From contig NZ_QARE02000004.1 in assembly GCF_003052515.2 (NCBI RefSeq), forward strand, positions 186,001-250,000: 64,000 bases of DNA, read 5' to 3'. A program made the translations under genes and the position numbers. How positions within the stretch are numbered: position 1 is the first letter of the stretch; each line of letters starts with the position of its first letter. Source of the DNA: Pseudomonas sp. RIT409 (lineage in GTDB: Bacteria > Pseudomonadota > Gammaproteobacteria > Pseudomonadales > Pseudomonadaceae). The notes under the pieces are model-generated. The model had not been told where the DNA came from. It made no database searches and saw only the letters and a list, made by a program, of their open reading frames with translations. Positions 4,084 through 14,020 of this stretch are shown piece by piece.

Positions 4084-4968
4084 TCACTCGGGTGTGCCCT
4101 GCGCCAAGCCCGAACCCAAGTCTGCACCGGTCACCGGGTCGACCGTCAGATCGGACTGTGTACGCTCTTTCATCATGGTCAGGGTGACCGAATCCTGCTC
4201 GTTGAGGGTCACCGAGGCAGTCCCGTCGCCGCCATCCACCGCAGGCGTCGGGTTCTCCACGTACTCGAACTCTTCGTCGCTGTTCCACGGGCCACGAACG
4301 TTCGGCTCGCCGCTGGACATGCTGTAGTAGGTGCGGCTGAATTCCGGCATGCCCGGCAATTTGCCCTGCGGGAAGTTAGGCTGGATCGAATGCAGGGCTT
4401 TTTCGAAGGAAATCTGATGCGCGATCTCTCGGGTCATCAGGAAGCCCAACGCGTCTTTCACCCCAGGGTCCGTGGTCACGTTCATCAGGCGCTCATAGAC
4501 GATCTTGGCCCGCGCCTCGGCAGCGATGTTCGAGCGAAAGTCCGCCGTGGGCTCGCCGATCGTGTCGATGTACGCTGCCGTCCAGGGCACCCCGGCAGAA
4601 TTAACCAGCGGTGCACCGCCGCCATACAGCAGGCTGGTGATGTGCGAATCGTTCCCTGCACCATTGATGTCCCTGTAAAGCTCGCCCTCCTCCTGAACGC
4701 CCTCGGCCACCTTGCCCTTCGCCCCTTTGTTGAGCATGACGATGATCGAACCGATGATCTCGAGGTGGCTCAATTCTTCGGTGGCGACATCCAGAAGCAG
4801 GTCCTTGCGCCCTGAATCTTCCTCGCTCAATGCCTGGGTGAAATAACGCGTAGCGGCAGCAAGTTCGCCTTGGGCACCCCCAAACTGCTCCAGTAGCAAA
4901 TTGGCCAACCCCGGATTCGGTTCAGCGACTCGAACGGTATATTGCAGACGTTTATTGTGCAGAAACAT
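4084..4968 (-). CDS. katN: Manganese catalase
   Basis: Non-haem dimanganese catalase that disproportionates hydrogen peroxide, 294 aa. The four-helix ferritin-like core carries the expected ligands: E35, the EELSHLE helix (E65/E66 and H68), E151 and the REIAH motif (E181, H184). The C-terminal tail with GPWNSDEEFEYVENPTPAVDGGDG is typical of the family. The start at 4968 (MFLHNKRLQYTV) has GGGAG about 9 bases upstream. It neighbours a YciF-like and a DUF4142 gene, a grouping seen in osmotic, desiccation and stationary-phase stress regions of Pseudomonas. The protein has no signal peptide and is presumably cytoplasmic. Confidence 0.95.
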   Translation of the reverse strand: MFLHNKRLQYTVRVAEPNPGLANLLLEQFGGAQGELAAATRYFTQALSEEDSGRKDLLLDVATEELSHLEIIGSIIVMLNKGAKGKVAEGVQEEGELYRDINGAGNDSHITSLLYGGGAPLVNSAGVPWTAAYIDTIGEPTADFRSNIAAEARAKIVYERLMNVTTDPGVKDALGFLMTREIAHQISFEKALHSIQPNFPQGKLPGMPEFSRTYYSMSSGEPNVRGPWNSDEEFEYVENPTPAVDGGDGTASVTLNEQDSVTLTMMKERTQSDLTVDPVTGADLGSGLAQGTPE

Positions 4969-5245: not shown

Positions 5246-5746
5246 TTATTTCTTGGCCAAGGTCGCGGCCTGGTTGCCCCCTTGCTCAGCGATTGCACTC
5301 AGCTTTTCGTCCGCGGACTTTTCCTCGGTCAGCGTTTGCGCCAGAAGGTCAGCGGCATCGGTCATTCCCAAGTGCTTGGCCATCGCGATCAGCGTGCCGT
5401 AGGCAGCGATCTCGTAGTGCTCTACCTTCTGGCAGGCCCCGATCAACGCGGCGTCCAGCACTTCGCCCTTCTCGATTTCATCGAGCAGCTCCTTGCTCTC
5501 TTCCACCAGCCCTTCCATGGCCACGCATTTCATCCGTTTGAGCTTCAACCCTGCTTGCTCCACCAATTGGTCGATGCGCTCGATCTGCCCCTGGGTTTCC
5601 TCCAGGTGAGCCGAGAATGCCTCGGCGAGTTTCGGATTGGTCGCAGCACGGGCCAGCCTTGGCAACGCCTTGGTAATTTGTTTTTCCGCACTGTAGACAT
5701 CGGAAAGTTCATGAATGAAAAGATCATCTACCGTTTTTCTGGCCAT
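5246..5746 (-). CDS. YciE/YciF-like ferritin-fold protein (DUF892)
   Basis: Protein of 166 aa beginning TVDDLFIHELSDVYSAEKQI, the hallmark of DUF892 (YciE/YciF) proteins. These form ferritin-like four-helix bundles, dimerise and are induced by osmotic and stationary-phase stress. Conserved acidic/His residues occur in HLEETQGQIERID, MEGLVEE and KVEHYEIAAYGTL. The AGGCGAGGA region before the ATG at 5746 supplies the ribosome site. It lies upstream of katN on the same strand, 277 bases away, and is divergent from the DUF4142 gene. The biochemical role is unknown even in characterised bacteria; iron or radical handling is inferred from the fold. Confidence 0.9.
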   Translation of the reverse strand: MARKTVDDLFIHELSDVYSAEKQITKALPRLARAATNPKLAEAFSAHLEETQGQIERIDQLVEQAGLKLKRMKCVAMEGLVEESKELLDEIEKGEVLDAALIGACQKVEHYEIAAYGTLIAMAKHLGMTDAADLLAQTLTEEKSADEKLSAIAEQGGNQAATLAKK

Positions 5747-5937: not shown

Positions 5938-5982
5938 TAGGTTGGGCGCTAATGCCCAATTGAAAATAATGAGGAAATGGAT

Positions 5983-6498
5983 ATGGCCAAGTTCGTTAAC
6001 GTATGTGCACTGAGTCTGCTTGTGGGATTGGGCGCGCAAGGCGCTTTTGCAGCACAGGACAACGACGACTTTGTGGAAGATGCCTCGGCGAAAGGCGTTG
6101 CCGAAGTCGAAGCCGGTAAGCTCGCCCAGGAAAAGGGCACGGCCGCGGATGTGAAAAGCTTTGCTGACATGATGGTCAAAGACCATACCGCTGCGAACGC
6201 CAAACTCAAATCCATCGCAGACGCCAAGAAATTGGAGGTCTCCGACAGCGCCGAACTGCTGGACAAGGCCAAATCGATGATTCTTGAACTGCGCAGCGCC
6301 AAATCCTTCGACCAGGCCTACGCCAACAATCAGGTGAAGGCGCACGAAGCCACTATTGAACTGTTCGAGAAGGAAGCCACCGACGGCAAGGACGCGGAGC
6401 TCAAGGCGCTTGCCCAGGAAACCTTGCCCAAACTGAAAGCGCATCTGGAGCAGGCCAAAGCCTTGGCCAAAGCCCATGGTGGTGACGCCGCCAATTGA
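5983..6498 (+). CDS. Exported DUF4142 protein
   Basis: Protein of 171 aa with a cleavable Sec signal peptide (MAKFVNVCALSLLVGLGAQGAFA-A) followed by a helical DUF4142 domain. The domain has the usual FVEDASAKGVAEVEAGKLA start, the DMMVKDHTAANAKL helix (ferritin-like Asp/His pattern) and a Lys/Ala-rich end. GAGGA is only 1-2 bases from the ATG at 5977 but about 7 bases from the ATG at 5983, so the second ATG is preferred. DUF4142 proteins are predicted periplasmic or outer-membrane-associated helical bundles with a ferritin-like profile. The function is unknown; the context suggests envelope stress. Confidence 0.9.
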   Translation: MAKFVNVCALSLLVGLGAQGAFAAQDNDDFVEDASAKGVAEVEAGKLAQEKGTAADVKSFADMMVKDHTAANAKLKSIADAKKLEVSDSAELLDKAKSMILELRSAKSFDQAYANNQVKAHEATIELFEKEATDGKDAELKALAQETLPKLKAHLEQAKALAKAHGGDAAN

Positions 6499-6707: not shown

Positions 6708-8048
6708 ATGACCTCTCTGCGAAACCTTACCGACCGCCTGACTCCCGACCAGCCCCTCGTCACCGACGCCGCCTCGTTGTATCGAGCGTTATTGCATGCG
6801 CCCGATCAAGTCGATCGCGATCAACTTCGCCGCTTTCTCATTGAACGTCTGAAGCAGGCCAGCACGGTGCAGGTCGATCTTCCAGAAAATCTGAACGATC
6901 TTGCCGACTGGATCGAGCGCAACGCGAGCACGGTTGCGGGAGCCTATCGGGCGTATCTGGAACAGCGCCGCGCCGGGGCCGGAAGGCGTTTCTTCAGCAG
7001 CAAGGCCCATGCGCTGAACTTTTTGCAGCAGGTCTCTCCGACCAAGCTGGTTGACGGCGCCTGGCTATACGGAGCGCTGAACCACGTGGGTGACTGGCGC
7101 TACCACCACCTTATTCGCACGTATTTGGAGGAATTGGGCGACGGTGATCCCACGCTCAACCACGTGGTGCTCTACCAACAACTGCTGGCGGATCACGACT
7201 GCGCGCCCACCGAACAGCTTGAAGACGCGCTGTACGTCCAAGGTGCGATTCAGTTGACGCTCGGCTGCATGGCTGACGAATTTCTTCCCGAGCTGCTCGG
7301 CTACAACCTCGGTTACGAACAGCTCCCGCTGCATCTGCTTATCACCGCGTTCGAACTCAACGAGCTGCGCATCGATCCCTATTACTTCACGCTCCATGTG
7401 ACCGTAGACAACGCCAGTAGCGGGCATGCGCACAAGGCGGTTGAGACCGTGCTGAACCTCATGCCAAAGGACGCCTCCCGCGCTGAGTTCATCGAACGCG
7501 TCAAGGCTGGCTACCGGCTGAACGAATTGGGCAAAGGCACTCAGGCAGTGATTGCGGATTTCGATCTGGAAAAAGCCGTCGTCGCCATGCTCGAGCGCAA
7601 ACGTACGTTCGGCCAATACATGCACTCCGACTACTGCCGCCTCGAAGGTCTGACCGTCAACGAGTGGCTCAGCGAACCGGGCCGCAGCAAGGACTTCCTG
7701 ACCGCCCTAGAAAACCGGGGTTGGATCAAGCGCAATCACCCTCCTGAAGAAAGCCGGTTCTGGCAGCTCATCGCTGGCCCCAAGGCCGTCATGTTCGGCG
7801 TGTTCAGCGGCTACGAAATGCAGCTGCTCGGGGACTGGATCGCGGGTGACTGGCAATCGGGAGAAACGCACGACCCTTTCCGGGCGCATTTTCGCAGGCG
7901 CACCGCAGCCGCGACTGTGCCCACGGACAGCAATGGACCCGTCGCGGGCGAGCACCTCATCGCGCTGTTGTCGCCTGCGCTGCATGCCACGCCTGAAGGC
8001 CTGAAGGCCACCCGACTCTTTTCCCGTCAACTCGTAAAAGGATTTTAA
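6708..8048 (+). CDS. Haem-oxygenase-like iron-containing redox enzyme (HDO superfamily)
   Basis: Protein of 446 aa with a central helical domain (about residues 110-275) of the iron-containing redox enzyme / haem-oxygenase-like diiron oxidase type, the fold of UndA, BesC and SznF. Candidate ligands are E141/E142, H152, E195 and the HVTVDNASSGH stretch (H230, D234, H240). The last corresponds to the HxxxD...H helix of characterised members. N-terminal (1-100) and C-terminal (290-446) extensions make it nearly twice the length of UndA. It is followed after 5 bases by a methyltransferase gene, so the two proteins probably act together. The substrate is unknown; an N- or C-oxygenation or C-C cleavage of a small molecule would fit the superfamily. 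Confidence 0.8.
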   Translation: MTSLRNLTDRLTPDQPLVTDAASLYRALLHAPDQVDRDQLRRFLIERLKQASTVQVDLPENLNDLADWIERNASTVAGAYRAYLEQRRAGAGRRFFSSKAHALNFLQQVSPTKLVDGAWLYGALNHVGDWRYHHLIRTYLEELGDGDPTLNHVVLYQQLLADHDCAPTEQLEDALYVQGAIQLTLGCMADEFLPELLGYNLGYEQLPLHLLITAFELNELRIDPYYFTLHVTVDNASSGHAHKAVETVLNLMPKDASRAEFIERVKAGYRLNELGKGTQAVIADFDLEKAVVAMLERKRTFGQYMHSDYCRLEGLTVNEWLSEPGRSKDFLTALENRGWIKRNHPPEESRFWQLIAGPKAVMFGVFSGYEMQLLGDWIAGDWQSGETHDPFRAHFRRRTAAATVPTDSNGPVAGEHLIALLSPALHATPEGLKATRLFSRQLVKGF

Positions 8049-8053
8049 GTCCG

Positions 8054-9040
8054 ATGAGCCAAGCCACTCTTCCTTCTCGGCCGATTGAAACGGTCAACCC
8101 TGACGATCGGACCCATGACCTGGCTCTCGTGCAGTTGGGCAGGCGCCTTCAGGCGGATCAGTATCAATTCACCACCGTCACGCCCCTCACCCACCAGCGC
8201 AACAATGCGCGCGAGCGAAACCATCAGGCCCAGAGCTTGCGAGATATCTTTGGCTGGAATCGGCCCTTCGCCAGCGACCTGCTTCCCGAAGCCGAACTTC
8301 AGGCGCTGCTTTCCCACGCCATCATCCGCGCCCATGCCGGGCTGTGGATCAGCGAAGTGCGGTGGTCCAGCCTGCATGACCATCTGTTCGTGCATTCCGC
8401 GTTTCCCACTGTGTCAAACGACTCGGTGTTCTTCGGTCCTGATACGTATCGGTTTGCTCAAGCCATTGAAGAACATCTGCGCACCTCGACCCATCCGATT
8501 CGGACGGCCGTCGACATCGGTTGTGGCAGTGGCGCGGGGGCCATCCTGATTGCCAAGGCGCGACATGATGCGCAGGTCCTGGCACTCGATATCAATCCCA
8601 CTGCCCTGCGATTCACCGCCGTCAATGCCGCGCTGGCCGAAGTGGATAACGTGTCGGCATGGCACAGCGACCTGCTTGCCAGTGCCTCTGGCGAGTTCGA
8701 CCTGATCGTCGCCAACCCGCCTTACATGCAAGACACCCAGAAGCGCGCCTATCGCCACGGCGGTGAGCGACTGGGTTCGGAACTGTCGGTGCGGATCGTC
8801 GAGCAGGCCATCGGACGTCTCACAGTGGGCGGGAGCCTGGTGCTCTATACCGGTTCGCCGTGGGTCGAAGGCGTCGACCTGTTCCTCGAACACGCGCGGC
8901 CACTGGTAGACAAGCCTGGGTTGAGTTGGTCCTACCGCGAAATGGACCCCGACGTATTCGGCGAGGAACTGGATACCGAAACCTATGTCAGCGCCGAGCG
9001 CATCGCCGCTGTGGTGCTTACGGTCACTCGAACCTCATGA
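8054..9040 (+). CDS. HemK/PrmC-like SAM-dependent methyltransferase
   Basis: Class I methyltransferase of 328 aa. An N-terminal helical region (1-145) precedes the SAM-binding motif VDIGCGSGAG (153-162), the acidic motif II LALDIN (176-181) and the NPPY catalytic tetrad (221-224). NPPY is typical of N5-glutamine and N6-adenine methyltransferases. It is not PrmC itself: the N-terminal region and the neighbours differ, with no prfA nearby. It lies in an operon with the iron enzyme upstream and overlaps the membrane protein by ATGA. The target could be a metabolite made by the iron enzyme or a protein; the sequence does not decide. Confidence 0.85.
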   Translation: MSQATLPSRPIETVNPDDRTHDLALVQLGRRLQADQYQFTTVTPLTHQRNNARERNHQAQSLRDIFGWNRPFASDLLPEAELQALLSHAIIRAHAGLWISEVRWSSLHDHLFVHSAFPTVSNDSVFFGPDTYRFAQAIEEHLRTSTHPIRTAVDIGCGSGAGAILIAKARHDAQVLALDINPTALRFTAVNAALAEVDNVSAWHSDLLASASGEFDLIVANPPYMQDTQKRAYRHGGERLGSELSVRIVEQAIGRLTVGGSLVLYTGSPWVEGVDLFLEHARPLVDKPGLSWSYREMDPDVFGEELDTETYVSAERIAAVVLTVTRTS

Positions 9041-9573
9041 CCACTATCATCACCCAGCGCTCTGATATCGATGCGCAGAACGCTGCTGATGCGATCATGT
9101 TCGGGTCGCTCAAGGACCGACTGGATTTCTATCGCAAGGAAATCCAGTACGAAACGACCATGCTGTCGAACCGGACCAACGCCTACTTGGGTGCCCAGTC
9201 GTTTCTGGTGATCGCGTACGCGTCTTCCATGGCCAACGTCAACCCGGACTGGGGTAGCCTGTTTTCCCTGGTCGTTTCGGTGCTGCTCTCCGTGCTGGGG
9301 CTGATCACCTCGCTGCACGCCTGGTCGGGCATCAAGGCCGCTTATGAAATCATCGATCACTGGTACCTGAAACAAAGCCACCTGTTGCAGAGCCAGCCGC
9401 GAATGGGCGACGTGTACGACGATTCTCCGCTGTTCGCCAAGCGGGAATCCAATCAGCGCGGGTACCGCGACGCACTTAAGTTTTCCATGCGTTCGCCGTG
9501 GATCTTTTCAACCCTGTGGATCATCCTCGGGGGCTTTTCGGCGCTCATCCACCTGGTGCCGTTCAAACACTGA
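9037..9573 (+). CDS. Small membrane protein, third gene of iron-enzyme operon
   Basis: Protein of 178 aa; its ATG overlaps the methyltransferase stop codon (ATGA), indicating translational coupling. After a soluble N-terminal segment (about 1-45, containing LKDRLDFYRKEIQYE) there are two hydrophobic helices close together (about 50-90) and a third at the C-terminus (SPWIFSTLWIILGGFSALIHL). The cytoplasmic loop between holds Tyr/Trp-rich IIDHWYLKQSHLL. The layout resembles small RipX/SLATT-like helical membrane modules but I cannot assign a family. It may anchor or export the product of the two upstream enzymes. Confidence 0.75.
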   Translation: MTTIITQRSDIDAQNAADAIMFGSLKDRLDFYRKEIQYETTMLSNRTNAYLGAQSFLVIAYASSMANVNPDWGSLFSLVVSVLLSVLGLITSLHAWSGIKAAYEIIDHWYLKQSHLLQSQPRMGDVYDDSPLFAKRESNQRGYRDALKFSMRSPWIFSTLWIILGGFSALIHLVPFKH

Positions 9574-9620: not shown

Positions 9621-10118
9621 TCAGGCGGTCTCGCCTGCAAGCACACGCCGATGAAACACCGGTAAATGCTCCAGTGCGTGGAGCGCAGCATCCTGTTGCA
9701 TGGCGGTGCGGTCGCCGAAGAACCGGTGCCGTCGGGTGAATACGCTCAACTGTCCATCGTTCATGAAGGCCCACGCGAAACACACTGTCCCTGCCGGAAT
9801 GCCGTCCATATCCTCGTTACCACACAAGCCCGTGGTGGCAATCGCAACCTTGGCCGGACTGTCCCGGAGCGCGCCGATGGCCATTTCTCTGGCAACCTCG
9901 ACGCTGGTCAGATTGAAGGTCTTGATCGTCGTTGAACGTACCCCGAGCAATCGCTGCTTCGCCTCCGGGGAATACACCACGTACCCGCATTCGACCAATG
10001 CGCCGCTTCCCGGAATCTCGGCGAGCAGTGCGACGATACGGCCGGCCGTGCAGGACTCGGCCGTAGTCACGACCAATGCGTGCTCGTTCAAATACTCCAC
10101 CGTCTCTTCAACGATCAT
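9621..10118 (-). CDS. Stand-alone CinA C-terminal-type amidohydrolase
   Basis: Protein of 165 aa with the CinA/PncC fold: TAESCTAGRIVALLAEIPGSG near the N-terminus and GYVVYSPEAKQRLLGV. PncC hydrolyses nicotinamide mononucleotide to NaMN in NAD salvage. Here the usual GIAGPxGG active-site loop is replaced by GLCGNEDMDG, so the substrate may differ. The ATG at 10118 is chosen because AGGTG lies about 7 bases upstream; upstream ATGs lack this. The canonical Pseudomonas cinA/pncC is beside recA, so this is a paralogue. It is divergent from the zinc dehydrogenase gene. Confidence 0.8.
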   Translation of the reverse strand: MIVEETVEYLNEHALVVTTAESCTAGRIVALLAEIPGSGALVECGYVVYSPEAKQRLLGVRSTTIKTFNLTSVEVAREMAIGALRDSPAKVAIATTGLCGNEDMDGIPAGTVCFAWAFMNDGQLSVFTRRHRFFGDRTAMQQDAALHALEHLPVFHRRVLAGETA

Positions 10119-10311
10119 CGGGCACCTCATCCCATAGGTTTCGTGATTGTGGGTATGACAGAACCGGATTGCGTTCCTCTCGGATTTCATCGCCCATGCA
10201 GCATGAAAGGCGCGTTGCCCACCGCTTGTCCCCGCTGCGGACAATGCCCTGAACTAACGTCTGCCGCAGGGGCTCCGCTGTGTACACCCCCTAAAGCAGC
10301 GGAGATATTTC

Positions 10312-11532
10312 ATGCGAGCACTCACTTATCACGGCGCCCACAACGTCAAGGTGGATACGGTTCCCGACCCGGTGATCGAACAGCCTGACGACATCGTTCT
10401 GCGGGTCACTGCGACGGCCATCTGTGGCTCGGACTTGCACCTCTACCGCGGCAAGATCCCAACTGTGGAACACGGTGACATCTTCGGGCATGAGTTCATG
10501 GGCATCGTCGAAGAAACCGGCTCGGCAGTGACGGCCGTGCAGCCGGGGGATCGCGTTGTGATTCCTTTCGTGATCGCCTGTGGGCAGTGTTTTTTCTGCC
10601 ACCAGGATCTCTTTGCCGCGTGCGAGACGACCAACACCGGGCGTGGCGCCATTCTCAATAAGAAGGCCATTCCGCCAGGCGCCGCGCTGTTCGGTTTCAG
10701 CCATCTGTACGGCGGTGTGCCGGGCGGACAGGCCGAATACGTCAGGGTGCCGAAGGCCAACACAGGCCCGTTCAAAGTGCCAGGCACGCTCGCCGATGAG
10801 AAGGTGCTCTTCCTCTCTGACATCCTGCCCACTGCCTATCAGGCAGTCACCAACACCGGTATCGGACAAGGGTCGAGTATCGCCATCTATGGCGCAGGCC
10901 CGGTCGGTCTACTGTGCGCGGCGGTGGCGCGGATGCTGGGCGCCGAGCGTGTCTTCATGGTCGATCACCATCCCTACCGCCTCGCCTACGCACAAGCGAC
11001 CTACGGCGTGATACCGATCAACTTCGATGAGGATGATGATCCGGCCGACACCATCATCCGGCAGACACCGGGGATGCGTGGGGTCGACGGCGTGGTGGAC
11101 GCGGTAGGTTTCGAAGCCAAGGGCAGCACCACCGAAACCGTGCTCGCCACGTTGAAACTGGAGGGCAGCAGCGGCAAGGCGCTGCGTCAGTGCATCGCCG
11201 CCGTCCGGCGTGGGGGCACGGTGAGCGTGCCAGGGGTGTATGCCGGTTTCATCCATGGCTTCATGTTTGGCGATGCCTTCGACAAAGGGTTGACGTTCAA
11301 GATGGGCCAGACCCATGTGCAGCGCTTTCTTCCTGAACTGCTCGAGCACATCGAAGCCGGCCGCCTTGCCCCGGAGGCGATCATCACGCATCGAATGTCG
11401 CTGGAGCAGGCGGCCGAAGGCTACAAGATCTTCGACAAAAAACAGGAGGATTGCCGAAAGGTCATTCTGACACCCGGCACCAGTGCGATCCCGCTCACGG
11501 AACCTGACGATTCAGTGAGCGTGCCCGCGTAA
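10312..11532 (+). CDS. Zinc-dependent alcohol dehydrogenase, formaldehyde-dehydrogenase-like branch
   Basis: Medium-chain dehydrogenase of 406 aa. Catalytic zinc site: [10 protein letters not shown] with GHEFMG. The structural zinc lobe is partly altered: CGQCFFC holds three cysteines and a fourth follows in FAACETTN. The Rossmann motif is [12 protein letters not shown], followed by the acidic VDHHPYR, indicating NAD(H). The 30-residue insertion and the [14 protein letters not shown] segment place it in the glutathione-independent formaldehyde dehydrogenase-like group (FdhA/YjmD-like). GGAG precedes the ATG by 8 bases. The gene stands alone, and the real substrate is uncertain. Confidence 0.85.
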
Positions 11533-11629: not shown

Positions 11630-12022
11630 TCAAGGGCGTTTTGAATCGAGGGCCAGCCGGATCTGTCGGACCACGGCCGGTGTATCGAAGGGTTTCAAGA
11701 ACACGGCGGTAAACAGGTCAGGCCGGGCAATGCCCAAATGCGCTTGAGCGCCGCTCATAAGCATCATCGGGGTCCTCTCGAAGCCCGGAGTGGATTTGAC
11801 CTTCTCCGCGAATTCGACGCCCGTCATCCCAGGCATCATGAAATCCGTGATGATGAGGTCAGGCCTTTCCCGTTCAAGGATATCCAGCGCCCTCAACGCG
11901 CTTGCCGCAGTGACCGGCAGGAAACCCTCCTCTTCCAGCGCGAAGCTCAGGATGTCTGCAATCAGGTATTCGTCGTCGACGATCAAGACGGTCTTCATAG
12001 CCGACGAGCGCTCAAAGGCCAT
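11630..12022 (-). CDS. Receiver-only response regulator downstream of KaiC-like gene
   Basis: Single CheY-like receiver of about 122-130 aa with VLIVDDE (acidic pair), the phospho-acceptor Asp in LIITDFMMPG, the Ser of LMSGA and the Lys of FLKPFD. There is no output domain. The ATG at 12022 has GGAAAG 5 bases upstream and is preferred; an internal ATG at 11998 (MKTVLIVDDE) fits family alignments but lacks a ribosome site. It lies 54 bases downstream of the KaiC-like ATPase on the same strand and is probably co-transcribed, suggesting phosphorelay to or from that ATPase. Confidence 0.9.
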   Translation of the reverse strand: MAFERSSAMKTVLIVDDEYLIADILSFALEEEGFLPVTAASALRALDILERERPDLIITDFMMPGMTGVEFAEKVKSTPGFERTPMMLMSGAQAHLGIARPDLFTAVFLKPFDTPAVVRQIRLALDSKRP

Positions 12023-12076
12023 GGAAACTTTCCGAATAGCGCTGAAGGCCCGTTCATTGTTATTACCCGCATTTCT

Positions 12077-13465
12077 TCACACCCTTTTAACCTCGATCCC
12101 GTCCCGGGACATCACCACCTCTAGCAGCGAGGGGTCGAACGCGCTGTCTCTGACCTTGAGAATTCTCAGTTGCCGTTGGAGTTCAGCCTGGCTGCGGCTG
12201 ATCTCGACGAGCAGCAGGTTATCTGCAGTACTCGCGAAATCCGGAGTCAGGTAGTGAGGGCCGGTGACTGCCATGTGGCTGAGTTCATAGCTGGCCAGAA
12301 CGGTCACCCCTTGGGCCCGAAGGGCTTCGAGCAAGGCCACGGTAACGCCTTGCACCCGGCCAGGATCAGCCGAGACTTTGCCTAACCCGCGCAAGCTGTC
12401 CAGAAAGACGCGCTTGATACCGTGACGCTCGACTGCTTCCAGTAACTCGTAGGCGACTCGATCAATAATCGCCGGCGCAGACGGGCGCCAAAGCATATGC
12501 AACGCGCCTCGGGATTCGAGCTGATCAGACGCGAGGCCCAACGCAGTCGCCTTCATCCGGAGGCGGTATGGGGACTCATGAAACCCGAAATGCAAGCCAG
12601 GCTCATCAGGTGTGCTGGCGGACAGAAACTGAAGCCCCAACGACGTCTTGCCAGCACCCGACGGCCCAATCAGTAGCGAGATGGACGACTCCATCAAGCC
12701 GCCACCCAGGCTGACATCGAGCGCGGCACTGCCAGACGTGACACGCCCAAGCGGCACCTCAGCTGCCACTGATGACGTTGCCGCCTGGCTGTCCAGACGT
12801 GGGTAGATCGCTATTCCCTTATCGGTGATTTCGAATTCGTGTGCCCCGGCAATGGCACCACTGCCGCGGGTCTTTCTGAGTTTTAAGCGCCTGATGGGCA
12901 CCGCGCTGATGCTCTCCTCACTCATCTCGATGACGCCATCGACCATGGTGTGCTCAGGGCTGCCCTCGTCGAGCTGCGAGCTGGTAAGAAAGAGCACGGT
13001 GCAGCCCGCGAAAGCCGCATGCCCCTGCAACGCGGCGATGAATTTCTTGGTATCGATCGGGGCCTCGGCTTTGGAGCGAGCGTTCAAGAGCCCGTCGAGG
13101 ATCAACAGGGATGACTTCTGGCGCGAAATTTCTCGGCGCAACAACTTGACCACTTCGTCCAGCCCGTCATTCTCCAAGGTATCGAAGGCGCTGACGAATT
13201 GGATGCTGTCGCCCAATGCGCAACTGTCGAAAAACGTCAACGTGGACAAGAACTGAAAGAGACGGTCATGAGGCTCGGCGAGCAGAGAGGCGAACAGCAT
13301 ACGCCCACCGCGCTTCACATGGTTGAAGCCAATCTGGTTGGCGAGGATGGTTTTCCCTGACCCAGGTCGCCCCTGAATGATGTAGGAGGCCCCCGAAATG
13401 AGCCCTCCCTTGAGCAACGTATCAAGACCAGGAACTCCCGTTTCTAGACGTTCAAGCTGTTTCAC
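12077..13465 (-). CDS. KaiC-like double-domain RecA-fold ATPase
   Basis: Protein of 462 aa with two KaiC/RadA-type domains: Walker A GRPGSGKT (32-39) and GPSGAGKT (267-274), with Walker B-like SSLLILDGLL and VFLDSLRGL. Starts and linkers (ETGVPGLDTLLKGGLISG) are KaiC-like. The end of domain 2 (FASTADNLLLVE, QLRILKVRDSAFD) aligns with the KaiC phosphorylation region, but only part of the cyanobacterial Ser-Thr dyad is kept. GTG start at 13465 with GAGGAAACGAAAC in front. No kaiA or kaiB is present in the window. Flanked by two receiver proteins, so a signalling rather than clock role is inferred, as for other proteobacterial KaiC homologues. Confidence 0.9.
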   Translation of the reverse strand: MKQLERLETGVPGLDTLLKGGLISGASYIIQGRPGSGKTILANQIGFNHVKRGGRMLFASLLAEPHDRLFQFLSTLTFFDSCALGDSIQFVSAFDTLENDGLDEVVKLLRREISRQKSSLLILDGLLNARSKAEAPIDTKKFIAALQGHAAFAGCTVLFLTSSQLDEGSPEHTMVDGVIEMSEESISAVPIRRLKLRKTRGSGAIAGAHEFEITDKGIAIYPRLDSQAATSSVAAEVPLGRVTSGSAALDVSLGGGLMESSISLLIGPSGAGKTSLGLQFLSASTPDEPGLHFGFHESPYRLRMKATALGLASDQLESRGALHMLWRPSAPAIIDRVAYELLEAVERHGIKRVFLDSLRGLGKVSADPGRVQGVTVALLEALRAQGVTVLASYELSHMAVTGPHYLTPDFASTADNLLLVEISRSQAELQRQLRILKVRDSAFDPSLLEVVMSRDGIEVKRV

Positions 13466-13660
13466 GTTTCGTTTCCTCGTACGGCATCACAGCCATTCAT
13501 TCGGCTCGGAAAACACCGAGGGGCAGTCGGTATCAGCTGAGGATGACCTCATCCGTCGCAGGGCGCCTGCCCTCGCGCTCTCAAGGACCTGCCCCCAACA
13601 TGACCACTCTTTCTATCCGCCAGGGCAGCGTTTCTACGGCGCTTTCCCGGCATGAGAGGT

Positions 13661-14020
13661 TCAACGCTTCAAATGTGAACCAACGACCTGATGCAGATCA
13701 TCGAGCGACCAGGGTTTGCGTAGAAATGAGGCGTTGTCGGGGAGATGGCTATCGAGAACGATGCGATTACCGGAAGAAAGAATCACCGGCAAGTTCGGCC
13801 ATTTCGCCCATATGGTCCGGGCCAGCTCAAGACCATCGCATGCGCCTGGCATGCAGATGTCCGTAATCACTAGGTTGAAAGCATGGGGCTGACCGAGCAG
13901 GCGCAGCGCGTCGTCAGCACTGACGCACTCGACCGTTTCAACTTCGATCAGCGTCAGCGCTTCGGTAATGAGCGTCCGGAGTGCCTCTTCGTCTTCGACC
14001 AGCAGAGCAGTAATGGCCAT
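13661..14020 (-). CDS. Receiver-only response regulator upstream of KaiC-like gene
   Basis: Single receiver domain of 119 aa: LLVEDEEALRTL, phosphorylatable Asp in LVITDICMPG, and the Lys in FLRKPWSLDDL. There is no DNA-binding domain. It precedes the KaiC-like gene by 195 bases on the same strand. It is closer to the FixJ/CheY-like receivers attached to hybrid kinases than to the second receiver downstream of the ATPase, so the two are not a recent duplication. The cognate kinase is not in the window. The ribosome site is weak. Confidence 0.9.
   Translation of the reverse strand: MAITALLVEDEEALRTLITEALTLIEVETVECVSADDALRLLGQPHAFNLVITDICMPGACDGLELARTIWAKWPNLPVILSSGNRIVLDSHLPDNASFLRKPWSLDDLHQVVGSHLKR

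What the first reader, a model, noticed from the sequence alone, without database searches (positions are those of the whole stretch)
6708..9573. Uncharacterised operon: iron oxidase + HemK-like methyltransferase + membrane protein
Three genes separated by 5 bases and an ATGA overlap couple an oversized haem-oxygenase-like diiron-type enzyme (446 aa), a NPPY-motif methyltransferase and a small three-helix membrane protein. HDO enzymes tend to do unusual chemistry (alkene formation, N-oxygenation, C-C cleavage), and a dedicated methyltransferase suggests a modified small metabolite or tailored protein. I know of no described pathway with this trio. Hypothesis: oxidation then methylation, with the membrane protein serving anchoring or export.
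Basis: partly seen in the sequence, partly recalled or inferred. Interest (0 to 1): 0.7.

Follow-up and report, generated by a model that had tools for sequence, protein, structure and literature searches.

The report
Stress-protection oxidase with partner methyltransferase
In this Pseudomonas genome, a relative of DtpC, a predicted iron oxidase that helps dried Acinetobacter cells survive, sits in a conserved gene pair with a predicted methyltransferase, and the two likely work on one pathway to a small molecule that would protect cells from oxidative stress.

Summary
The three genes are as described, but only the first two form a conserved unit. HDO and methyltransferase (MT) genes adjoin in 73 of 73 loci and occur in the same 22 of 57 relative genomes. 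The membrane gene follows in 2 of 73. The oxidase is a homologue of Acinetobacter DtpC (PMC13232832), an HDO that suffices for desiccation survival and limits peroxide; its mutated residues E143/H153/H232 align with E142/H152/H230. The A. baumannii record searched has no full-length MT. The MT is not the genome's PrmC; its model fits the N-methyltransferases AerE and GenN nearly end to end. Three associations suggest biosynthesis: a YbdK-type ligase seen only in HDO-positive relatives (10 of 22 against 0 of 35); a HrmI-type HDO beside MT homologues elsewhere; cyanophycin genes or an arginine-deiminase-like fusion in some. Best reading, inferred: oxygenation plus N-methylation of an amino-acid-derived protectant. 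DtpC's authors listed small-molecule synthesis as one option; I saw the MT partner in none of the listings from my paper searches.

The parts
6708..8048 (+). DtpC-type haem-oxygenase-like diiron oxidase (HDO), 446 aa; metal content predicted
7053..7427 (+). codons 116-240: candidate ligands E142, H152, E195, H230, D234, H240, and D116 as a weaker guess
   Evidence: Invariant in 77 of 77 MT-linked and 6 of 6 MT-unlinked homologues; spacing 10-43-35-4-6 against SznF 10-56-30-4-3; convergence not measured on coordinates
8054..9040 (+). HemK-like predicted N-methyltransferase (MT), 328 aa, NPPY motif
9037..9573 (+). 8xMP-family predicted membrane protein, 178 aa; accessory neighbour, not part of the conserved pair
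   Evidence: PF24838 33.7 bits, cut-off 30; behind the pair in 2 of 73 loci; mostly unlinked elsewhere
4084..4968 (-). manganese catalase, stress-gene neighbour
   Evidence: PF05067 E 1.1e-94
5246..5746 (-). DUF892 neighbour
   Evidence: PF05974 E 4.3e-58
5977..6498 (+). DUF4142 neighbour
   Evidence: PF13628 E 1.4e-41
9621..10127 (-). stand-alone CinA domain, neighbour
   Evidence: PF02464 E 2.2e-38; this family also in 4 of the 51 other long loci
10312..11532 (+). Zn-dependent alcohol dehydrogenase, neighbour
   Evidence: PF08240 E 5.3e-25; family in 14 of 52 long loci, the window counted

Best explanation
Genes 1 and 2 are a conserved pair encoding a homologue of the Acinetobacter desiccation-protection oxidase DtpC and a HemK-like predicted methyltransferase, which likely work on one pathway, one oxygenating and the other N-methylating an amino-acid-derived small molecule that would protect dried or peroxide-stressed cells; the third gene follows the pair in 2 of 73 loci and is likely only a neighbour. 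Shown here: pairing, co-occurrence, ligand conservation, stress-gene context, and folds by prediction. Shown by others for the homologue: DtpC suffices for desiccation survival in a strain without KatE, limits hydrogen peroxide and needs E143, H153 and H232. Inferred: that the oxidase binds two irons and oxygenates nitrogen (closest folds are the N-oxygenases RohS, HrmI and SznF); that the methyltransferase acts on an amide, guanidine or amine nitrogen (closest folds AerE and GenN); that in some lineages an amide ligase (YbdK-type or cyanophycin synthetase) supplies or extends the substrate. The nearest mechanistic model is SznE/SznF, an arginine methyltransferase and an HDO that work together on arginine.
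For: HDO-MT adjacency 73 of 73 and identical presence in 57 genomes. In 398 phylum genomes 17 of 18 MT genomes have a DtpC-type or HrmI-type HDO. MT homologues lie beside a different, HrmI-type HDO (tested against HrmI for two: E 4e-29 and 6e-29) in Sphingobium, Sphingomonas, Komagataeibacter, Variovorax, Legionella and G346, as if a chemistry is kept while the oxidase is swapped. YbdK-type ligase in 10 of 22 HDO-positive and 0 of 35 HDO-negative genomes, 7 of 10 linked. Cyanophycin genes beside the HDO or the pair in L123, L146 and L108; arginine-deiminase-like domain fused to MT in L125. DtpC phenotype and mutants: PMC13232832 (abstract, sections 3, 5, 6 and 10 read). SznE/SznF: PMC11705231 (passages). 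Acinetobacter DtpC groups with an MT-linked HDO (L100) at 98/95, so a lost partner is plausible there.
Against: No metabolite, substrate or activity is known for either protein. A. baumannii DtpC protects although the one A. baumannii record searched holds no full-length MT; 5 of 22 genomes with either HDO type lack MT at the threshold used, and 4 of 14 examined plasmid records with the HrmI-type HDO have none beside it. Cyanophycin synthetase presence is not significantly linked to HDO presence (4 of 22 against 24 of 376, p 0.06), and the window's genome has no match at 1e-100. The window's genome lacks the ligase. H240 sits three residues further from D234 than the counterparts in SznF and the HrmI-type HDO. 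RpoS- and AlgU-like motifs were not enriched upstream. Several forks of the tree are open and the tool flags both Acinetobacter rows for odd composition.
Confidence: 0.45

Rival explanations
1. The HDO protects directly, by consuming peroxide or oxygen or by holding iron, and makes no diffusible product; the methyltransferase has a separate stress task.
For: DtpC can stand in for KatE and limits hydrogen peroxide; its authors list iron sequestration and scavenging as options (PMC13232832, sections 5, 6 and 10). HDOs occur without MT: the A. baumannii record, G249 and G260, and the HrmI-type in G208, G294 and G404. Stress neighbours such as Mn-catalase.
Against: Does not explain why MT is almost never found without an HDO (17 of 18 have one), nor adjacency in 73 of 73 loci, nor the swap of HDO type beside the same MT family. 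DtpC did not protect against acute hydrogen peroxide (PMC13232832 discussion).
Confidence: 0.3
2. The MT methylates a protein, perhaps the HDO itself or a translation factor, as HemK-family enzymes do.
For: HemK-like sequence and fold, NPPY motif; MT nearly always with an HDO while an HDO can be alone.
Against: No Asn, Gln, Lys, Arg or His is conserved at 93% or more in 77 MT-linked HDOs and kept in 2 or fewer of 6 unlinked ones (a residue kept in both sets would escape this test). Far below the PrmC and PrmB cut-offs, and the genome has two other hits over the PrmC cut-off.
Confidence: 0.12
3. The genes belong to a specialised metabolite cluster (antibiotic, toxin or metallophore) with the membrane protein as exporter.
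For: Characterised HDOs act mostly on small molecules in natural-product pathways (PMC13108848, section 4).
Against: The recurrent neighbour families that I labelled are stress, repair or general ones (Ku, LigD, Zn-ADH, DUF421, CinA, DUF4142). Labels are partly by eye, not all families were labelled, and no domain scan for NRPS or PKS was run on the neighbours. Membrane gene not conserved.
Confidence: 0.08

Closest known systems
DtpC of Acinetobacter baumannii (PMC13232832)
   Same: Homologous HDO, 35.8% identity over 438 aligned columns; the candidate ligands and the three mutated residues align; stress-gene surroundings with a catalase near by.
   Different: The Acinetobacter gene is co-transcribed with katE and the A. 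baumannii record searched has no full-length MT; here the HDO is followed by an MT and the nearby catalase is a manganese catalase on the other strand. No KatE in 51 other long loci.
SznE/SznF of streptozotocin biosynthesis (PMC11705231, passages)
   Different: No cupin match was returned for the window HDO; the partner MT is HemK-like; substrate unknown; the context is stress genes.
HrmI and RohS (HDO N-oxygenases)
   Same: Closest solved folds to the window HDO; the HDO paired with MT homologues elsewhere is a sequence relative of HrmI.
   Different: Window HDO is 446 aa with about 150 residues beyond the matched fold, and an H-x3-D-x5-H motif where HrmI has H-x3-D-x2-H (alignment; RohS not seen there).
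AerE and GenN N-methyltransferases; PrmC/HemK
   Same: Nearly full-length fold match to AerE and GenN, match of the catalytic part to PrmC and HEMK2.
   Different: 18-23% identity to AerE and GenN in those alignments; below PrmC and PrmB curated cut-offs.

Membership tests
Haem-oxygenase-like dimetal oxidases (HDO) | Haem-oxygenase fold / PF14518 | tested here: met
Haem-oxygenase-like dimetal oxidases (HDO) | Three His and three carboxylate ligands on core helices | tested here: met
   E142, H152, E195, H230, D234, H240 invariant in 83 of 83; by sequence only, spatial convergence not measured
Haem-oxygenase-like dimetal oxidases (HDO) | Binds two metals and activates oxygen | not testable with these tools
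   needs purified protein
DtpC desiccation-tolerance proteins | E143, H153, H232, required for protection in A. baumannii | tested here: met
   Present as E142, H152, H230
DtpC desiccation-tolerance proteins | Operon with katE | tested here: not met
   KatE in 0 of 51 long loci; described for Acinetobacter only and may not define the wider family
DtpC desiccation-tolerance proteins | Protects dried cells and limits peroxide | not testable with these tools
   needs deletion strains
PrmC/PrmB glutamine methyltransferases | Curated equivalog score | tested here: not met
   TIGR03534 80.8 against 199.1; TIGR03533 57.1 against 229.7
PrmC/PrmB glutamine methyltransferases | Is the genome's best PrmC candidate | tested here: not met
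   Other places reach 299.2 and 201.8 bits, both over the cut-off; MT 80.9
AerE/GenN-like N-methyltransferases | Fold match including the N-terminal part | tested here: met
AerE/GenN-like N-methyltransferases | Methylates nitrogen | not testable with these tools
   needs assay
SznE/SznF-type arginine pathway | Arginine substrate | tested here: inconclusive
   Only indirect: cyanophycin genes and an ADI-like fusion in other lineages
SznE/SznF-type arginine pathway | C-terminal cupin domain on the HDO | tested here: inconclusive
   No cupin family returned at E 1 or better; fold matches cover residues about 15-296 only

The most novel reading that the evidence does not exclude
Bacteria make an unrecognised N-methylated, N-oxygenated arginine or aspartyl-arginine derivative as a stress protectant, through an exchangeable HDO (DtpC-type or HrmI-type) plus one conserved N-methyltransferase, with an amide ligase (YbdK-type or cyanophycin synthetase) or an arginine-deiminase-like enzyme added in some lineages; Acinetobacter DtpC is a stripped-down branch of this pathway.
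Probability: 0.22. Interest if true: 0.88.

Novelty: new variant of a known kind. Interest (0 to 1): 0.62.

Why it matters
DtpC was reported in 2026 as the first HDO tied to desiccation and oxidative-stress survival, with its mechanism left open between iron binding, scavenging and small-molecule synthesis (PMC13232832). A conserved methyltransferase partner, an optional amide ligase and a parallel HrmI-type pairing make the small-molecule option directly testable by comparing metabolomes of two single-gene deletions. If right, it would put HDO chemistry into general stress physiology in Pseudomonas and its relatives, outside antibiotic clusters.

Tried and rejected
Trio as a unit: rejected (membrane gene in 2 of 73 loci; mostly unlinked). 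MT as a PrmC substitute: rejected. MT modifying a particular HDO residue: no MT-specific conserved Asn/Gln/Lys/Arg/His. RpoS or AlgU motifs within 200 bases upstream of 73 HDO genes: fewer than in shuffles (0 against 2.7, 3 against 18.7, 0 against 0.1, 0 against 2.2; simple mononucleotide shuffles). KatE linkage in Pseudomonas: 0 of 51; Mn-catalase in 2 of 51 besides the window (E 1e-15). Cyanophycin synthetase as a general co-occurring gene: not significant; only its adjacency is notable. A weak MarR-like match of the HDO C-terminal part (E 0.12) was not pursued. The best PADLOC hit for MT (mad2, E 4.4e-21) covers MT residues 131-275 only and I did not take it as defence. Paper searches aimed at the pair or its homologues were made; searches had other aims (67 brought the DtpC paper). 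I saw listings only, capped or shortened (20 of 26; 17 of 19; 10 of 479; 10 of 429; 3 of 5), and the library is open-licence PMC only, so absence from print is not shown. The RohS structure paper is not held. Limits: loci may overlap in species; one search finds close relatives only and its peptide patterns come from the window protein; the phylum searches scored at most 2-5 candidates per genome, so absences there are soft; Fisher tests ignore kinship.
Full report
WHAT IS THERE. The window carries HDO 6708-8048 (446 aa), MT 8054-9040 (328 aa) and a 178-aa frame 9037-9573 overlapping by ATGA. Pfam gives PF14518 for HDO, PF05175 for MT and PF24838 (8xMP, 33.7 bits against 30) for the third. NCBIfam gives nothing for HDO or the third protein; MT stays under the cut-off of each of the 25 families shown of 64, PrmC 80.8 against 199.1. 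The nearest database HDO, 98% identical, is named Pseudomonas sp. GD03842.

THE CONSERVED UNIT IS A PAIR. I took 22 HDO loci from 57 relative genomes, the window's included, and 51 from named genomes (a close-relative search). In all 73 an MT homologue adjoins the HDO: 72 on the same strand, 71 of these with a gap of 25 bases or less and 35 touching or overlapping, one with 103 bases, and one (L069) divergent. MT (E 1e-20 or better) occurs in 22 of the same 57 genomes, exactly the HDO-positive ones (same-genus Fisher p 2.6e-10, kinship ignored). The membrane gene follows the pair in 2 of 73 loci; it is in 21 of 57 genomes (17 of 22 HDO-positive, 4 of 35 HDO-negative; same-genus p 0.006), directly behind the pair in the window, within 2 kb of the HDO in G010 and G035, and farther away in the other HDO-positive genomes. 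It looks like another stress-island gene, not a subunit.

A THIRD PARTNER IN OTHER STRAINS. A YbdK-type carboxylate-amine ligase (NF010039 over cut-off in three of three tested; PF04107 in the one tested) was detected by the pair in 21 of 73 loci (22 of the 73 have short flanks; one of the 21, L035, is a remnant of about 70 codons). In relatives it is in 10 of 57 genomes, all HDO-positive, 7 linked and 3 unlinked (same-genus p 0.0027). The window's genome lacks it.

NEIGHBOURHOOD. Recurrent families in 51 long loci and the window include Zn-ADH, a CheB/CheR-type protein, Ku, LigD, DUF421, CinA and DUF4142 (several labels are mine by eye, many families were left unlabelled). Beside the window pair lie Mn-catalase, DUF892, DUF4142, CinA and Zn-ADH. 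An Acinetobacter plasmid homologue lies among catalase, alcohol dehydrogenase, DUF421 and trehalose synthesis genes. This is a stress and repair setting.

THE OXIDASE IS A DtpC HOMOLOGUE. A literature search led to PMC13232832 (abstract, introduction, two results sections and discussion read; passages). DtpC of A. baumannii is an HDO co-transcribed with katE; either gene suffices for desiccation survival; peroxide stays low in dried cells if either is present; E143A, H153A or H232A abolish protection. In an A. baumannii record the homologue lies just upstream of a KatE-type catalase, and with the second ATG as start its residues 143, 153 and 232 align with E142, H152 and H230 here. Identity is 35.8% over 438 columns. 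The authors noted uncharacterised Pseudomonas and Stutzerimonas relatives and named small-molecule synthesis as one of three options. A text search for methyltransferase in that paper's held main text gave 0.

BEYOND PSEUDOMONAS. In 398 genomes of the phylum, full-length HDO (E under 1e-100) is in 17, MT (E 1e-40 or better) in 18, both in 15. MT adjoins at 14 of 18 HDO places; of the other four, G347 has an unlinked MT, G249 and G260 have none at full length, and one is a second copy in G413. MT homologues on plasmids led to a second HDO type of about 300 aa: on a Sphingobium plasmid the order is cyanophycin synthetase, isoaspartyl peptidase, cyanophycinase, MT, HDO, dicarboxylate symporter; in Komagataeibacter MT-HDO; in Legionella sainthelensi an arginine-deiminase-like domain fused to MT, then HDO, with LigD and Ku near by. 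Other MT homologues had no HDO beside them (L126, L127, L129). Two of these HDOs were tested and match HrmI at E 4e-29 and 6e-29. Of 15 listed plasmid records with this HDO at 50% identity or more, MT adjoins in 10 (five Komagataeibacter records judged from coordinates), not in 4, one not examined. In the 398 genomes it is in 5: MT adjoins in G346, beside cyanophycin genes, lies on another contig in G312 and is not found in 3. Taking both HDO types, 17 of 18 MT genomes have one and 5 of 22 HDO genomes lack MT (p 1.5e-24, kinship ignored). In G347 a DtpC-type HDO lies directly upstream of a cyanophycin synthetase. Cyanophycin synthetase is in 28 of 398 genomes and in 4 of 22 HDO genomes (p 0.06), adjacent in 2 of those 4.

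INFERENCE. MT nearly always travels with an HDO, the HDO can be alone, and two different HDOs sit beside the same MT family. That fits an oxidase and a methyltransferase on one pathway better than two unrelated stress proteins, and amide ligases or arginine-type genes in several lineages suggest an amino-acid-derived substrate. SznE/SznF is a precedent for an arginine methyltransferase working with an HDO. Order, substrate and product are unknown. In a 28-row tree the two Acinetobacter DtpC rows group with MT-linked L100 (98/95) inside a mostly MT-linked tree, two or three changes of the label being needed; several forks are open, the root is for drawing only and the Acinetobacter rows are flagged for composition. 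So Acinetobacter may have lost the partner. Since its DtpC still protects, MT cannot be essential everywhere; that is the strongest point against the pathway reading and for direct protection by the HDO.

VERDICT. Observation confirmed, trio reduced to a pair, oxidase filed as a DtpC-type HDO on sequence and residues, methyltransferase as a non-PrmC, probable N-methyltransferase of unknown substrate. New variant of a known kind.

Noticed in passing
L125:6140-8913: Legionella sainthelensi plasmid: arginine-deiminase/DDAH-like domain fused to the MT, followed by a HrmI-type HDO, with LigD and Ku near by.
   Followed up: partly
L123:2571-10310: Sphingobium gene row cphA - isoaspartyl peptidase - cyanophycinase - MT - HDO - dicarboxylate symporter.
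   Followed up: partly
L108:4214-8444: In G347 the DtpC-type HDO lies just upstream of a cyanophycin synthetase; its MT is 0.7 Mb away.
   Followed up: partly
L107 (G413 second HDO copy): A second HDO paralogue whose counterparts of E141/E142, H152 and H240 are lost in my alignment, so probably not metal-binding in the same way.
   Followed up: no
L076:2976-6386: A Paraburkholderia protein annotated LodA/GoxA CTQ-dependent oxidase carries an HDO-like stretch in its C-terminal half.
   Followed up: no
L077:3351-5675; L078:3357-5660; L103-L106: Larger proteins (open frames of about 740-820 aa) with a C-terminal HDO-like domain and a related H-x3-D-x5-H motif; in L077 and L078 an acyl-CoA dehydrogenase gene follows.
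   Followed up: no
window 11630-14020: KaiC-like two-domain ATPase flanked by two single-domain response regulators.
   Followed up: no
L145:2390-7475: In G204 an MT homologue without any HDO found lies about 3 kb from a probable manganese catalase, recognised by eye.
   Followed up: no
L120 (NZ_CP104448.1): An A. baumannii record labelled plasmid in PLSDB is 4.09 Mb, the size of a chromosome.
   Followed up: no
L035:7239-7445: Only the C-terminal end of the carboxylate-amine ligase matches behind MT, a probable remnant.
   Followed up: no
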